Source of the DNA: Anaerolineae bacterium
Lineage (GTDB): Bacteria; Chloroflexota; Anaerolineae; Aggregatilineales; Aggregatilineaceae
Reading direction: 5' to 3'
DNA length: 54,994 nucleotides
NCBI GenBank assembly: GCA_023382715.1
Contig: JAHDWP010000022.1
Coordinates: 1 to 54,994, forward strand
A model generated the notes under the pieces. That model was not told the origin of the DNA. It saw nothing but the letters and a program-made list of their open reading frames with translations, and did not search any database. Made by a program: the position numbers and the translations under genes. Below, piece after piece: positions 3,103 through 43,106 of the stretch. Numbering within the stretch: position 1 is the first letter of the stretch; each line of letters begins with the position of its first letter.

Positions 3103-5006
<1,904 letters not shown>

Positions 5007-37240: not shown

Positions 37241-37533
37241 TCAGGTTGTCTGGTCTTCATGCTCCTCTGCGTTGAACTGGCGCTCCAACATCTTCTGAAA
37301 CGCCAAATGCCTGGTTTCCCGAAACGTCTGGAATGGCGTGCGGCCATTACAGTGTTTGCCGCTGTGGGGGCGCTCGCGATTGTATTCGAGCAACCATTCA
37401 TCCAGATCAACTTGCAGGTTTTCCAGCGAAGCAGACAGCTTTTTGCGGAACGCAACCTGATAGAACTCATCTGGAATGGTGCGGTGGAACCGCTCGCAGA
37501 TGCCATTCTGGCGCGGCCTTCCGCCTCCACCCT
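37241..37533 (-). pseudogene. IS481/IS3-type transposase, C-terminal remnant
   Basis: About 95 codons of the integrase-core C-terminus are preserved: GRPRQNGICERFHRTIPDEF, LQVDLDEWLLEYNRERPHSGK and TPFQTFRETRHLAFQKML. These include the conserved Glu of the DDE triad (GICERF) and the ERPHSG motif. Upstream of about 37533 the frame no longer encodes transposase, so the N-terminal HTH and both catalytic Asp are lost. It is cut off 77 bp before the start of the divergently oriented GTPase-like/VOC gene. It is inactive on its own. Confidence 0.82.
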
Positions 37534-37609
37534 TTTGCGTCCGGCGCGGTATAATCCACCCCAGCGCCGCCGGAATCGCCACGCGTTCCCGGCGCAAAGG
37601 ACGACGCTC

Positions 37610-38653
37610 ATGCTCAAGATCGCCGTGTTCGGCTTTTACAGCCCCGACCAGTCGCGCCCTGCCGCGACCGACGGCTCGCCCTACCTCTCGCCAATCACAA
37701 CGGAGGAGTTCATGCGCACCGTCTGGGCGCTGGAGCCGGAGGAGCGGCGCGTGGGCGGCGCGCCGGACGCGCCCTGCTTCGTCAAGTTGACCACGCTGAC
37801 CACCCAGCCGGTGTACGTGCAGCGGCTCAGCGACGAGATGGCGCACGGCGCGGGCCTGCTGGCCTATGACGGCTACATCGCCATCATTGACGCGGTCAAG
37901 ATTCTGGCGCCGCGCGCCATTCGTAACGCGCTGCGCCGTCTGCGCGCGCAACACTCTGCCGCTCATCTGATCATCGCCGCCGGGCGACAGCACGAGCCAG
38001 ACGCCTTCTCCTCCGACGAGATTCGCCAGATGCTCGGCCTCAGCGCCTCACTGCCGATCATGCCCTACGTGCCGGGCGAGCCGAAGACGGTGCATCGCCT
38101 GGTCCGGCGCCTGGTGCGCTACATAGACAACCCGGATCGCCTTCCGCCGCCGATTTTCGCTGGCGAACCGGCCTTTGTCCCGCCAGCCCTGGCCCCTGAC
38201 GACGACGCGACCCTCGCGCCCCAGGTGACGCCCTCGCCCGCGCCGCGCGTCGAGCGCCTGGATCACGTCGCCATCGCCGTGAGCGATCTGGAACGCGCGC
38301 TGGCCTTTTACCAGGAGTCGCTCGGCTTCCGGCTCCTGGGCCAGATTGACCTGCCCGGTGACGATCCGCCGCGCACTGTCGCGCATCTGGATACCGGGCG
38401 CGGCATGCTGGCGCTGGTCAGCGGCGCAGATGACCGGGCGGAAGCCGGCGGAGACACGCGCCCCGGCCCGCTCTACGTCGCGCTGCGCGTGACCGGGCTG
38501 GAGGCTATCGTCGCGCGGCTGGCGCAGGCCGGAGTCGCCGTGCGCAGCGCGCCGGTGAGTACGAATTACGGTGTGCGCATGGCCGTGGTCGCCGACCCGG
38601 ACGGCACGCCGATCCGGCTTGTCGAAGGCGACTTTGTCTATTCACGACGCTAG
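37610..38653 (+). CDS. Degenerate small-GTPase-like domain fused to a glyoxalase/VOC domain
   Basis: A 347-residue protein. Residues about 60-180 follow the second half of a Ras/MglA/ARF-like fold: AYDGYIAIIDAVKILAPRAIRNALRRL, HLIIAAGRQHEPDAFSSDEIRQML, then MPYVPGEPKTVHRLVRRLV. However, the P-loop (GFYSPDQSRP near residue 8) and NKxD (AGRQHEPD) are not conserved, so GTP binding is unlikely. Residues about 220-345 are a VOC domain (LDHVAIAVSDLERALAFYQESLGF, AVVADPDGTPIRLVEG) with glyoxalase-like metal ligands His/Glu. The start at 37610 has AAAGGA upstream; the frame is open further up through the IS remnant. The function is unknown. Confidence 0.65.
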   Translation: MLKIAVFGFYSPDQSRPAATDGSPYLSPITTEEFMRTVWALEPEERRVGGAPDAPCFVKLTTLTTQPVYVQRLSDEMAHGAGLLAYDGYIAIIDAVKILAPRAIRNALRRLRAQHSAAHLIIAAGRQHEPDAFSSDEIRQMLGLSASLPIMPYVPGEPKTVHRLVRRLVRYIDNPDRLPPPIFAGEPAFVPPALAPDDDATLAPQVTPSPAPRVERLDHVAIAVSDLERALAFYQESLGFRLLGQIDLPGDDPPRTVAHLDTGRGMLALVSGADDRAEAGGDTRPGPLYVALRVTGLEAIVARLAQAGVAVRSAPVSTNYGVRMAVVADPDGTPIRLVEGDFVYSRR

Positions 38654-39634: not shown

Positions 39635-39720
39635 CCGTCTACTCCCCCTCCCGCTTGAGCACGACCATCCCCAGCGGCGGAATCGTCAGGCTGAGGCTCT
39701 GCGACCAGCGGTGCCAGGGG
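39635..39720. repeat. 86-bp direct repeat, displaced copy of the glgB 3' end
   Basis: Identical over all 86 bp to 40898-40983, exactly 1263 bp away in the same orientation. It covers the last 27 or so glgB codons, the stop codon and 4 bp beyond, but is not connected to the rest of glgB. It marks the far edge of the DUF3800 cassette. Confidence 0.95.
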
Positions 39721-39740
39721 GAGAAACAGACTCGGTTCTG

Positions 39741-39874
39741 GGGTGCGTGCAAAATCTGTCAGGCGGTAGGGGCGCTGCTCTGCTGCGCCCCCGGGGGGGC
39801 GTATTGCAATACGCCCACACAGGCCTCACCTCGTTGGGTGTCAAGCAAATCGCTGACAACCTTTGCACGCACCC
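39741..39874. repeat. Spacer element with inverted ends (family A, copy 4)
   Basis: The shortest copy (134 bp): it starts GGGTGCGTGCAAAATCTGTC and ends CTGACAACCTTTGCACGCACCC. Inside are GGGGCG...CGCCCC and CGTATTGCAATACG inverted repeats. It lies inside the glgB-associated cassette, 20 bp from the displaced 86-bp repeat. Confidence 0.8.
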
Positions 39875-39990
39875 CGGTTCTGGAATCACTTCCTGATCTC
39901 AGTCTTTTGACGTATAATATACATAATCCGTTTTTACGGAGCTGGATCGCCCGCAGGGGCGAGCGTAAGAGAGCCTGGAAACAGGCTTTC

Positions 39991-40827
39991 TTATTTCTGC
40001 GGCTTCGGGAAAACCACAAATCCATATCCTTCCGCCCGGCCATCATACAAATGGCGGTTGAACTTCGATTGAGCGACTTCCGCCAGTTGTTGCCCAAACG
40101 TGGTAGCACTTGGCTTTGTCAAACCATACTGATGCAGTACCCATTGCTTGACCGGATGAGCCAAGATGTCGGCCAATTGCAGCCCCGCGATGTTGGCGCG
40201 TTTGTCCTTGAGCTTCAACTGTCGGGACGAAAGAGCCGTCTGGAAAGGGCTTGCTTTCACCAGCCAGGCACCCCGCTCGTAGATGCGCGTATACGACTCG
40301 GCCAATAGACGGTCCTCCTTTGTCCCACGTGCTTCCGCCATCACGTCCCCAATGCGGTTGATATGGTTCAAATAACCCACGTACCTCTGGAGCAGAAAAC
40401 CTAGCCCCAGGTGATAGGGATGCGCCGCAGCGTCGCCGTAAGCTGCCTGTAGCGCCTGTTTGTCAATAACTACAACTACCATCTTGAACTGAGCTTGCTC
40501 AATAACCCGAAGCAGATCGGTGTCGAAGGCTTCGCGCCTCTCTTCATCTCTCAGAACTTTGAACGCACGCCGCGCATTGACCATATCTTCCCGGTGCAGG
40601 ATAACAGGTTCGTCGGGGTGATGTGGCAAGTGGTCGTATTTCAACGTCTCAAGGGCCTGATGGAAGTGCAGGTAGTCGGGGTTGCGGAACCAGCATCCAA
40701 GCAGCGCCAAGAAACGATGTGATAGCTCTTCAGTCTGCCGATAGACGTGATCGCCCGACTCATCTAGATACAGCCGGTAACGATTCTCAAAATCGCTGGG
40801 CCGTGAAGGTGGATCGGCATCGCTCAT
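39991..40827 (-). CDS. DUF3800 protein
   Basis: A 278-residue protein of the DUF3800 family. Its acidic active-site-like motifs are YLDESGDHV (about residue 19), ILHREDM (about 75), VVVVIDKQA (about 118) and GLQLADILAHPV (about 215). These suggest an RNase H-like fold nuclease. Members are common in mobile DNA and defence islands; their reaction is not firmly known. The gene is AT-richer than its neighbours and lies between two identical 86-bp copies of the glgB 3' end, in the same orientation as glgB. No Shine-Dalgarno is obvious at the ATG. Confidence 0.8.
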   Translation of the reverse strand: MSDADPPSRPSDFENRYRLYLDESGDHVYRQTEELSHRFLALLGCWFRNPDYLHFHQALETLKYDHLPHHPDEPVILHREDMVNARRAFKVLRDEERREAFDTDLLRVIEQAQFKMVVVVIDKQALQAAYGDAAAHPYHLGLGFLLQRYVGYLNHINRIGDVMAEARGTKEDRLLAESYTRIYERGAWLVKASPFQTALSSRQLKLKDKRANIAGLQLADILAHPVKQWVLHQYGLTKPSATTFGQQLAEVAQSKFNRHLYDGRAEGYGFVVFPKPQK

Positions 40828-40897
40828 GGGTGGGCATCCACGCTAAATGAGCAAACCCCAAAATAGACAGGGCATTTCCTTCTTGACGACGAACTGG

Positions 40898-40983
40898 CCG
40901 TCTACTCCCCCTCCCGCTTGAGCACGACCATCCCCAGCGGCGGAATCGTCAGGCTGAGGCTCTGCGACCAGCGGTGCCAGGGG
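40898..40983. repeat. 86-bp direct repeat, genuine 3' end of glgB
   Basis: This copy is contiguous with the rest of glgB and provides its stop codon (TAG at 40902-40904 on the minus strand). It is identical to 39635-39720. The interval between the copies, 39721-40897, holds the DUF3800 gene and a family A element. Confidence 0.95.
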
Positions 40984-43106
40984 ATCGGGTCGCTGGGCCT
41001 GCCGCCGAGGTTGCCCACGTTGCCCCCGCCGTACACGCTCGCATCGCTGTTGAGCAGCTCGCGGTAATAGCCGGGCTGCGGCACCCCGATGCGGTAGTCG
41101 TGGCGCGGCACCGGCGTGAAGTTGAGGGCCATCACCAGGCAGTCCGCGCGATCCTCGGCGTAGCGAACGTAGGTGTAGACGCTCTGTTCGGCGTCGTTGG
41201 CCTCGATCCACTCGAAGCCCGCTGGGTCGAAGTCGCGCTGCCACAGCGCCGGCTGCTCCCGGTAGAAGCGATTCAGCGCGCGCGCCCAGCGTTGCAGGCC
41301 CTGGTGCGTGGCGAAGTTCTCGACCAGGTGCCAGTCCAGGCTGCGCGCCTCGCTCCACTCGCGCCACTGCCCGAACTCCTGCCCCATGAACAGCAGCTTC
41401 TTGCCGGGGTGCGTGGCCTGGTAGCCGAGCAGCAGGCGCAGCGTGGCGAACTGTTGCCACCAGTCTCCGGGAATCTTGCTGATCAGCGCGCCCTTCATGT
41501 GCACCACTTCGTCGTGCGACAGCGACAGCACGAAGTTCTCGCTGAAGGCGTACATCAGCGAGAAGGTGAGCTGGTGATGGTGCCAGCGCCGGTAGATCGG
41601 CTCGCGGCGGATGTAGTCCAGCGTGTCGTGCATCCAGCCCATGTTCCACTTGAGGGTGAAGCCCAGCCCGCCCAGGTACGTCGGGCGCGAGACCATCGGC
41701 CAGGCTGTCGACTCCTCGGCGATGGTCAGGCAGCCGGGGCACTGGCTGTGAATCTCGGCGTTGGCTTCCTGCAGGAAGCGAATAGCCGCCAGGTTCTCGT
41801 TGCCGCCGTGCTCGTTGGGCACCCACTCGCCCGCCTCGCGCCCGAAGTCGAGGTAGATCATCGAGGAGACGGCGTCCACGCGCAGCGCGTCCACGTGAAA
41901 TTTCTTCAGCCAGAACAGGGCGTTGCTGATCAGGAAGTTGCGCACCTCGTTGCGGGCGTAGTTGAAGATGTAGGTGCCCCAGTGCGGGTGCTCGCCCTGG
42001 CGCGGATCGGCGTGCTCGTAGAGGTGCGTGCCGTCGAAGTAGCTGAGGGCGTGCCCGTCTTTGGGGAAGTGCGCCGGCACCCAGTCCACGATGACGCCGA
42101 TGCCGTGCTGGTGGCACTGGTCAATCAGGCGCATCAGGTCGTGCGGCGTCCCATAACGGCTGGTCGCGGCGAAGTAGCCGGTCACCTGGTAGCCCCACGA
42201 CATATCGAGCGCGTGCTCGGCGACGGGCATCAGCTCGATGTGCGTGTAGCCCATCTCCTGGACGTAAGGCACCAGCGTCTCGGCCAGCTCGCGGTAGGTC
42301 AGCCATTCCAGCCCGCCGGTCTTGCGCCGCCACGAGCCGAGATGCACCTCGTAGATGCTCATCGGCGCGCGCAGCGGGTCGCGCGTGGGGCGGGCTTCCA
42401 TCCAGGCCGCGTCGCCCCATTCGTAGCGGTCGAGGTCAACGACCAGCGAGGCCGTGCGCGGGCGCATCTCCTGGGCGAAGCCGTAGGGGTCGGTCTTCTG
42501 CGTCTGGTAGCCGCCGGTGCGCGTGCGCAGGTCGTATTTGTAGGCCGTCCACTCGTCCAGGCCGGGGATGAACAACTCCCAGATACCGGCGTCGGGGTGC
42601 AGGCGCATGGGGTGCACGCGCGCATCCCAGCCGTTGAAGTCGCCGATGACGCTGACACGGTAGGCGTTGGGCGCCCACACTGCGAAATGCACGCCGCGCA
42701 CGCCGTCCACTTCGCGCAGGTGCGCGCCCAGCCGCTCGTAGCTGGTGAAATGCCGCCCTTCGCTCAGCAGGTAGCGGTCGTAGTCCGTCAGCAGCGGGCC
42801 GAAGCGGTAGGGATCGTGCAGCATCTCCTCGCGCCCATCGTTTGCCTGGGCGACGAAATGATAGGGCGGGGGCGGCCATGCCGCTTCCAGCGTGACGGCG
42901 AAGAAGCCGCCTTCGTCCAGGCGGGTCATGGGCAGGCGCGCGCCGTCCCGCTCGTCCACCAGGGTCAGCGCCGCTGCCGTCGGGAGAAAGGCGCGCACCG
43001 CGATCTCCCCCTCTCCGGCGGGGTGCGGGCCGAGCAGGGCGAACGGGTCGCCGTGATCGCCGCTGAGCAGGTTGCGGATGGCATCCGGGTGCAGATCAGG
43101 GGTCAT
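40902..43106 (-). CDS. glgB: 1,4-alpha-glucan branching enzyme GlgB
   Basis: A 734-residue GH13 enzyme that forms alpha-1,6 branches in glycogen. An N-terminal CBM48-type domain is at about 15-105, and a second at about 115-215 (FAVWAPNAYRVSVIGDFNGWD). The catalytic barrel contains the nucleophile Asp in LRVDAVSSM (about residue 409), the acid Glu in IAEEST (about 460) and the HDEVVHMKG block (about 530). The C-terminal beta domain ends VVLKREGE. The length is typical for GlgB. The last 86 bp of the gene (with stop) are duplicated downstream on the far side of the DUF3800 insert. No other glg genes are present. Confidence 0.96.
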   Translation of the reverse strand: MTPDLHPDAIRNLLSGDHGDPFALLGPHPAGEGEIAVRAFLPTAAALTLVDERDGARLPMTRLDEGGFFAVTLEAAWPPPPYHFVAQANDGREEMLHDPYRFGPLLTDYDRYLLSEGRHFTSYERLGAHLREVDGVRGVHFAVWAPNAYRVSVIGDFNGWDARVHPMRLHPDAGIWELFIPGLDEWTAYKYDLRTRTGGYQTQKTDPYGFAQEMRPRTASLVVDLDRYEWGDAAWMEARPTRDPLRAPMSIYEVHLGSWRRKTGGLEWLTYRELAETLVPYVQEMGYTHIELMPVAEHALDMSWGYQVTGYFAATSRYGTPHDLMRLIDQCHQHGIGVIVDWVPAHFPKDGHALSYFDGTHLYEHADPRQGEHPHWGTYIFNYARNEVRNFLISNALFWLKKFHVDALRVDAVSSMIYLDFGREAGEWVPNEHGGNENLAAIRFLQEANAEIHSQCPGCLTIAEESTAWPMVSRPTYLGGLGFTLKWNMGWMHDTLDYIRREPIYRRWHHHQLTFSLMYAFSENFVLSLSHDEVVHMKGALISKIPGDWWQQFATLRLLLGYQATHPGKKLLFMGQEFGQWREWSEARSLDWHLVENFATHQGLQRWARALNRFYREQPALWQRDFDPAGFEWIEANDAEQSVYTYVRYAEDRADCLVMALNFTPVPRHDYRIGVPQPGYYRELLNSDASVYGGGNVGNLGGRPSDPIPWHRWSQSLSLTIPPLGMVVLKREGE

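What the first reader, a model, noticed from the sequence alone, without database searches (positions are those of the whole stretch)
39635..40983. DUF3800 cassette bounded by perfect 86-bp copies of the glgB 3' end
The last 27 or so codons and stop of glgB (40898-40983) recur without mismatch at 39635-39720. Between them lie an AT-richer DUF3800 gene and a family A inverted-end element. The intact gene sits on one side and an orphan 3' end on the other, as when an element integrates at a gene 3' end and restores the gene. No integrase is inside, so the mechanism is not a standard genomic island.
Basis: partly seen in the sequence, partly recalled or inferred. Interest (0 to 1): 0.85.

Follow-up and report, generated by a model that had tools for sequence, protein, structure and literature searches.

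The report
Mobile nuclease-RNA unit duplicates gene ends
A tiny two-gene DNA unit, made of an RNase-H-like protein gene and a small-RNA gene on the other strand, sits flush against the ends of ordinary bacterial genes in many phyla and in some cases leaves a second copy of that gene end behind, which suggests a little-known way for a gene to move while sparing its host gene.

Summary
Observation confirmed: the last 82 bp of glgB plus 4 bp recur without mismatch (39635-39720 / 40898-40983) around 1177 bp that hold a DUF3800 gene. Three other genomes of the genus and unrelated DUF3800 loci in other phyla show the same arrangement, so misassembly is unlikely. Direct repeats flank 10 of 78 DUF3800 loci at E<1e-10 (8 outside the window's genus) against 0 of 554 control windows. 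Hosts differ: glgB, lysS, purC, hsdR, a DNA methylase; the 3' end or, in mirror image, the 5' end is doubled. The shared unit runs from the DUF3800 start codon to just past a convergent small-RNA gene whose pattern I found at 96 of 118 loci; the RNA covaries strongly and matches nothing in Rfam 15 where searched. DUF3800 is predicted to fold like RNase HII. Best reading: a selfish nuclease-RNA unit that spreads by recombination in the neighbouring gene, bringing a fresh gene end and leaving the old one as an orphan, as endonuclease ORFs do in fungal mitochondria. That the enzyme drives this, and which end is foreign, is not shown. In the window the orphan tracks its own glgB, so conversion between the ends is likely too. 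The 'family A' repeat is a later MITE.

The parts
40902..43106 (-). glgB, intact host gene
   Evidence: ORF; Pfam
40898..40983 (-). glgB 3' end, element-side copy (26 codons, stop, 4 bp)
   Evidence: 100% identical to 39635-39720
39991..40827 (-). DUF3800 gene, predicted RNase-HII-like fold
   Evidence: PF12686; AF2 pLDDT 95.4; 1eke Z 9.3
39922..40001 (+). convergent small-RNA gene (three hairpins; GGAGCTGG between the first two)
   Evidence: covariance model R1 hit 39922-40002 +, E 4.4e-19 (the model was built with this sequence among its 60); covariation
39913..39918 (+). TATAAT, candidate -10 box of the small-RNA gene; no good -35 box here
   Evidence: read; promoter scan found none; 50 of 90 distinct tails have [TA]GTCAA 25-29 nt past the hairpin, 0 at three control offsets
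39738..39875 (.). 'family A' MITE, later insertion into the spacer; 6-8 bp target duplication by my reading
   Evidence: inverted arms 39740-39762 / 39853-39875; copies; absent from G004 spacer
39635..39720 (-). orphan glgB 3' end

Best explanation
A two-gene selfish unit (DUF3800 nuclease plus a convergent small structured RNA) lies flush with the stop codon of a host gene, or just before its start. It spreads between homologous copies of that gene: one side is joined by homologous recombination inside the gene, so that the gene's end is replaced by the donor's end travelling with the unit; the other side is joined inside the recipient gene, about 50-200 bp from its end, without homology. Result: a hybrid but complete gene, the unit, and the recipient's old gene end left as an orphan. 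In the window the unit is at glgB; after arrival the two ends keep exchanging sequence and stay alike. Shown: the repeats, their recurrence, the unit's limits, the RNA; predicted: the fold. Inferred: that DUF3800 (with the RNA) makes the break, that the element-side end is the newcomer, and the later conversion.
For: Flanking direct repeats 10/78 vs 0/554 at E<1e-10, 11/78 vs 8/554 at E<1e-3; 13/68 vs 10/295 at E<1e-3 in a wider geometry and 1/300 cross pairs. The doubled part ends within 7 bp of the host stop in the window, L057, L058, L110, L123, L125 and L133, or begins within 25 bp of the host start in L085, L119, L064 and L066; L070 is an exception (62 bp short) and L100 has no clear host. 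Hosts are different genes. Differences between copies lean to synonymous: 36 of 61, pN/pS 0.23; L110 10:1. In L133 the orphan's stop overlaps the start of the next ORF, as in an operon, while the element-side stop overlaps the DUF3800 start. In 17 pairs of related units, likeness starts at -18 to +50 of the start codon in 15 and ends at -1 to +45 past the hairpin in 15. Spacer and leader lengths vary, unlike a transposon with fixed ends. glgB of other genera: one end, no unit. G000 and G004 share junction and spacer (60/62) though glgB is 91.7%.
Against: 67 of 78 loci show no repeat even at E<1e-3. The direct test of which end is foreign was inconclusive twice: purC 5' end 38/48 (gene) vs 39/48 (orphan) to G517, 33 vs 31 to G518; lysS 3' end too far from G557. 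The synonymous share is below that expected for two living alleles (P 0.002), so some orphans decay. In the window the copies are identical, so no donor is visible; right of the orphan the congeners differ while the left side is shared with G001, so later rearrangement is mixed in. The host is not always whole: in L119 the downstream methylase ORF stops after 168 codons, before a transposase-like ORF, and in L070, L123 and L125 the host runs off the contig. L064 and L066 may be one event. No cutting or movement was observed.
Confidence: 0.45

Rival explanations
1. Insertion with long target duplication: the unit inserts at two nicks 50-200 bp apart and doubles the stretch between them; only insertions whose duplication covers a gene end leave a working gene and are seen.
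For: Order B-unit-B in the positives; exact identity in the window (86/86) and G002 (61/61); restriction or methylase genes are frequent hosts (L064, L066, L133, L119), and R-M genes are the inserts in the H. pylori cases described in PMC1643837 and PMC3154945 (passages).
Against: The duplication stops at the stop or start codon rather than anywhere beyond; the unit's ends are not at a fixed distance from it; differences are too synonymous for one dead copy (P 3.4e-4).
Confidence: 0.25
2. Circle cycle: recombination between the two ends pops out a circle with one gene end and the unit, which re-enters any homologous gene by a single crossover; the nuclease at most makes the break.
For: Explains an orphan that tracks its own glgB in each species (G000 82/82, G002 61/61, G001 75/77, while the G002 orphan is 52/61 to G000).
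Against: Does not explain how a new host gene is first taken; no circle seen; not separable from gene conversion with these data.
Confidence: 0.12
3. Window only: an old local duplication of the glgB end, kept alike by gene conversion, with an immobile DUF3800 gene beside it.
For: Same layout in 4 of 4 glgB-bearing congeners; orphan tracks own glgB.
Against: Does not explain the same arrangement at other genes in other phyla.
Confidence: 0.1
4. Toxin-antitoxin-like pair: DUF3800 is an RNase toxin and the small RNA its antitoxin; the repeats are by-products of ordinary transformation.
For: Protein and RNA are linked (96 of 118); the RNA is kept without DUF3800 between two genes that I read as glpB and glpC in G002, G003 and G004.
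Against: No toxicity data; PADLOC finds nothing for three proteins. Compatible with, rather than opposed to, the best explanation.
Confidence: 0.08

Closest known systems
Fungal mitochondrial mobile ORFs with C-terminal duplications (Allomyces atp6; Glomus atp6, atp9, cox2, nad3; PMC3630166, passages read)
   Same: Endonuclease ORF beside a gene 3' end; an inserted end completes the gene, the native end is displaced downstream; differences largely synonymous
   Different: There endonucleases (LAGLIDADG in the atp6 case) in mitochondria, and relatives show which end is native; here an RNase-H-fold protein with a small RNA in bacteria, 5' ends too, foreign end not proven
Insertion with long target duplication of restriction-modification genes in H. 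pylori (Nobusato 2000, known to me through passages of PMC1643837 and PMC3154945)
   Same: Long direct copies of the target around an inserted gene
   Different: Inserted genes are R-M there; here R-M genes are often the host
DUF3800-associated RNA motifs (Rfam DUF3800-I and -IX are named in PMC11701678, passages read; the original paper is not held, and is recalled)
   Same: Structured RNA linked by name to DUF3800
   Different: No Rfam 15 family matched the RNAs tested; no link with mobility or doubled gene ends in the passages read
TPR-DUF3800 with Cas12a2 (PMC10910872, passages read)
   Same: DUF3800 described there as an RNase H fold with catalytic rearrangement and a link to ncRNAs
   Different: No TPR here; CRISPR context not searched for

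Membership tests
Integrase-borne genomic island at a gene 3' end | integrase gene inside | tested here: not met
   DUF3800 is the only insert ORF with a Pfam match; the 217-, 116- and 91-aa ORFs match nothing
Integrase-borne genomic island at a gene 3' end | direct repeat that leaves the gene whole | tested here: met
DUF3800 (PF12686) | profile score above cut-off | tested here: met
   38 vs 21 bits
RNase HII-like nucleases | fold | tested here: met
   predicted model; 1eke Z 9.3, 173 residues, rmsd 4.4; 3puf Foldseek E 6.8e-4; modest scores
RNase HII-like nucleases | catalytic acids and activity | tested here: inconclusive
   D22, E23, D161, E165, D172, D220 invariant in 63 proteins; active sites not superposed; activity needs the bench
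Gene-end-carrying homing element (fungal mORF type) | nuclease-like ORF between doubled gene ends, gene whole | tested here: met
   glgB, L064, L066, L085, L133; not L119; not visible in L070, L123, L125
Gene-end-carrying homing element (fungal mORF type) | element-side end foreign, displaced end native | tested here: inconclusive
   only the L133 junction favours it
Gene-end-carrying homing element (fungal mORF type) | nuclease cuts the empty allele | not testable with these tools
   needs bench work
Insertion with long target duplication | closely related pair, one with A-B-insert-B, one with A-B | tested here: inconclusive
   single-ended glgB only in other genera; none in the genus
Rfam DUF3800 RNAs | match to a covariance model | tested here: not met
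   window stretch and 29 loci given (at E up to 1 and 0.5; at gathering score)
Type III toxin-antitoxin (recalled) | RNA neutralises protein toxin | not testable with these tools
   bench

The most novel reading that the evidence does not exclude
A new class of minimal bacterial mobile element: an RNase-HII-like nuclease with its own convergent small RNA recognises and opens host genes near their ends and inserts flush with the reading frame, doubling the gene end so that the host gene can stay whole at each jump; relatives carry 23 phylum labels (MAG titles).
Probability: 0.3. Interest if true: 0.92.

Novelty: new variant of a known kind. Interest (0 to 1): 0.72.

Why it matters
DUF3800 is a domain of unknown function with RNAs of unknown function. 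Tying both to doubled gene ends gives a testable role (movement that spares the host gene), adds an RNA family that the Rfam 15 searches did not match, warns that the last or first codons of housekeeping genes may be of foreign origin, and would give bacteria a parallel to mitochondrial endonuclease ORFs. Clear unit limits and many natural hosts make cutting assays direct.

Tried and rejected
Misassembly: unlikely, recurs in separate assemblies and phyla. Standard island: no integrase found. Family A as part of the unit: rejected, absent from the G004 spacer. Rfam identity: none. Defence or NCBI family: PADLOC (3 proteins) and NCBIfam (2 proteins) gave none. Empty site in a well-sampled species: S. 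meliloti pSymA carries a distant DUF3800 (29% identity), but its flanks gave no clean empty site. Six plasmid and phage DUF3800 loci (L185-L190) do not match the RNA pattern and gave no direct repeat. Which end is foreign: purC and lysS tests inconclusive. The G000 region between the glpB- and glpC-like genes is not a clean empty site for the solo RNA: other sequence of similar length. DNA copies of the RNA region elsewhere in the window genome: none better than E 0.37. Protein tree: 34 phylum changes, least possible 22, shuffled mean 42.8, so the labels are partly clustered and this alone does not prove transfer. A fold that the structure searches did not list is not excluded.

Dropped rows: one search left out 6 of 84 loci with short flanks (L123, a positive, among them). 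One search used 8 loci (9 blocks) and left out L066 (gaps), L100 (short), the window and L058 (identical) and L057 (one difference); its first version let the script choose frames and was wrong for L064 and L070, among others. One search aligned 60 of the 90 distinct tails. Six pairs among the 118 loci are one locus fetched twice. Searches also gave direct repeats outside the usual geometry (L059, L101, L121, L126), direct ones in loci without the RNA pattern (L179, L184) and inverted ones (L117, L189). In one search the pattern also hit 6 times in flanks, which I did not inspect. In one search, two of 17 pairs depart on the left (L109/L112 at -105/-100; L175/L183 share the upstream gene) and one on the right (L095/L104 at +64/+62; one not measured); flank likeness was checked only for the pairs listed.

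Full report
Check. The repeat is real: one 86-bp family at 39635-39720 and 40898-40983 without mismatch. glgB (40902-43106, minus) ends in the second copy; between the copies lie DUF3800 (39991-40827, minus), a hairpin stretch and the family A repeat. Reading along glgB: glgB, stop, about 70 bp, DUF3800, hairpins, spacer, orphan glgB end.

Genus. Of 41 genomes searched with GlgB, matches to only the last 24-29 residues are listed in G000, G001 and G004 (the list is cut); DNA comparison adds G002. These four are the ones with DUF3800 next to glgB (in G004 the two lie on separate contigs, the glgB contig ending just before the doubled part). G003 has no glgB. The orphan resembles its own glgB: 82/82 in G000, 61/61 in G002, 75/77 in G001, while the G002 orphan is 52/61 to G000; for G004 its own end is not held. 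G000 and G004 share the junction and the spacer (60/62, MITE left out) although glgB is 91.7% and the orphans 89% alike. So the insert is old in part of the genus, and either the ends convert each other or the unit moved between lineages with the local end kept. Left of glgB G000 and G001 are alike, right of the orphan they are not. glgB of G005, G007, G012, G014, G020, G033 and G038, with 1.5 kb of downstream DNA held, shows one end at this sensitivity and no DUF3800 beside it.

Other hosts. Among 84 DUF3800 loci (80 of 119 found in genomes; 4 in viral contigs) direct repeats between the 400 bp before and 500 bp after the gene occur in 11 of 78 at E<1e-3 and 10 of 78 at E<1e-10; control windows in the same loci give 8 and 0 of 554; inverted repeats 1 and 0 of 78 against 4 and 0 of 554. 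Positives: L057 and L058 (window genus), L064, L066, L070, L085, L100, L110, L119, L125, L133; L123 (= L044) is a further one at a contig edge. Hosts by Pfam: SAICAR synthetase (L085), class II tRNA synthetase, lysS by my reading (L125), type I restriction R (L064, L066), an R-like helicase with EcoEI_R_C (L133), DNA methylase (L119); L110 has only sub-threshold TPR matches and, further upstream, weak AhpC-TSA; L070 reads as an hsdM 3' end before hsdS (recalled; Pfam gave nothing for the short piece). In L110, L123, L125, L133, L070 and the glgB group the 3' end is doubled; in L085, L119, L064 and L066 the 5' end is doubled and the gene starts again downstream. L100 has a 32-bp repeat and no clear host. 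Relative to the stop codon the doubled part ends at +4, -1, -7, 0, 0, -4, +1 bp (window, L057, L058, L110, L123, L125, L133); L070 falls 62 bp short. In L123 and L133 the DUF3800 GTG overlaps the host stop. The host is whole in G000-G002, L064, L066, L085 and L133; it is cut by the contig edge in L070, L123 and L125 and broken after 168 codons, before a transposase-like ORF, in L119; in L110 it holds an in-frame TGA.

Nature of the difference between copies. In 9 blocks of 8 loci 36 of 61 differences are synonymous, pN/pS 0.23; a dead-copy model expects 37% (P 3.4e-4), two living alleles 76% (P 0.002 the other way) (the selection strengths in both models are my assumption). L110 alone is 10:1. 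So at least some pairs look like two alleles, with some decay added. A direct test with relatives did not decide.

The unit. In 17 pairs of related units likeness starts at -18 to +50 of the start codon in 15 and ends at -1 to +45 bp past the third hairpin in 15. The tail pattern is present in 96 of 118 loci (window, 84, and 33 others, six pairs being duplicates) against 6 matches in 1.23 Mb of flanks, both strands. Read on the other strand it is a small-RNA gene: 50 of 90 distinct tails have a TTGAC[TA]-like -35 at the right distance against 0 of 90 at each of three control offsets; then TATAnT-like letters, three hairpins and in many a T run. The window itself has TATAAT at 39913-39918 but no good -35 box, and the promoter scan finds none. 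RNAalifold on 60 sequences: 10 pairs, 7 with double changes, 4 of 600 cells broken; 20 G-U and no A-C cells, which favours the strand opposite DUF3800. Rfam has no match in the window stretch and 29 loci given. In 61 relatives the model hits 9 genomes, including a solo RNA without a DUF3800 ORF between glpB- and glpC-like genes (named by my reading) in G002, G003 and G004 and one weak hit (G022).

Protein. AlphaFold2 model pLDDT 95.4 from 63 sequences. Best matches are RNase HII/H2 (1eke Z 9.3; 3puf Foldseek E 6.8e-4), then Argonaute PIWI and RNase HI. An earlier paper already calls DUF3800 an RNase H fold with ncRNA links (PMC10910872, passages).

Literature. 'DUF3800' is in 11 papers (10 listed), of which I read passages of three; further searches (15 of 68 listed, 3 listed) showed no listing that links DUF3800 to doubled gene ends. 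Subscription papers and preprints are not held, so prior description cannot be excluded. The nearest precedent is the fungal mitochondrial mobile ORF (PMC3630166, passages), then long target duplication of R-M genes.

Conclusion. A recurrent, probably mobile nuclease-RNA unit with doubled gene ends is well supported; how the ends become doubled is inferred. I favour one-sided recombination in the host gene over true target duplication.

Noticed in passing
39738-39875: Family A repeat is a MITE: about 135 bp, inverted ends GGGGTGCGTGCAAA, 45 other matches in the genome (some pieces of one copy), entered the spacer after G000 and G004 parted.
   Followed up: partly
L197, L200, L201 (G003, G004, G002): Solo copy of the small RNA between glpB- and glpC-like genes without DUF3800; identical over about 60 bp in G003 and G004 although the flanking gene differs.
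   Followed up: partly
L141, L142, L149, L148: The ftsW-murG boundary (genes named by my reading) holds a DUF3800 in G003 and G002, a truncated DUF3800-like ORF in G000, and a UvrD-like helicase ORF plus a DUF3800 3' remnant in G001: a possible hotspot.
   Followed up: partly
L110:3110-3200: In-frame TGA at 3152-3154 (WASW-TGA-GCR) in the thioredoxin/AhpC-like host gene, at the place of an active-site cysteine: candidate selenocysteine codon.
   Followed up: no
L175, L183: gatA-like gene followed by a 96% identical DUF3800 in G290 and G272, with unlike DNA after it (gatB-like in L183).
   Followed up: no
37241-37993: Minus-strand ORF with an rve_3 integrase core (IS fragment) near glgB.
   Followed up: no
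L064, L066: Related DUF3800 units (75% identity) at the 5' end of hsdR in Verrucomicrobia and Deltaproteobacteria MAGs: may be one event spread with the R-M genes.
   Followed up: no
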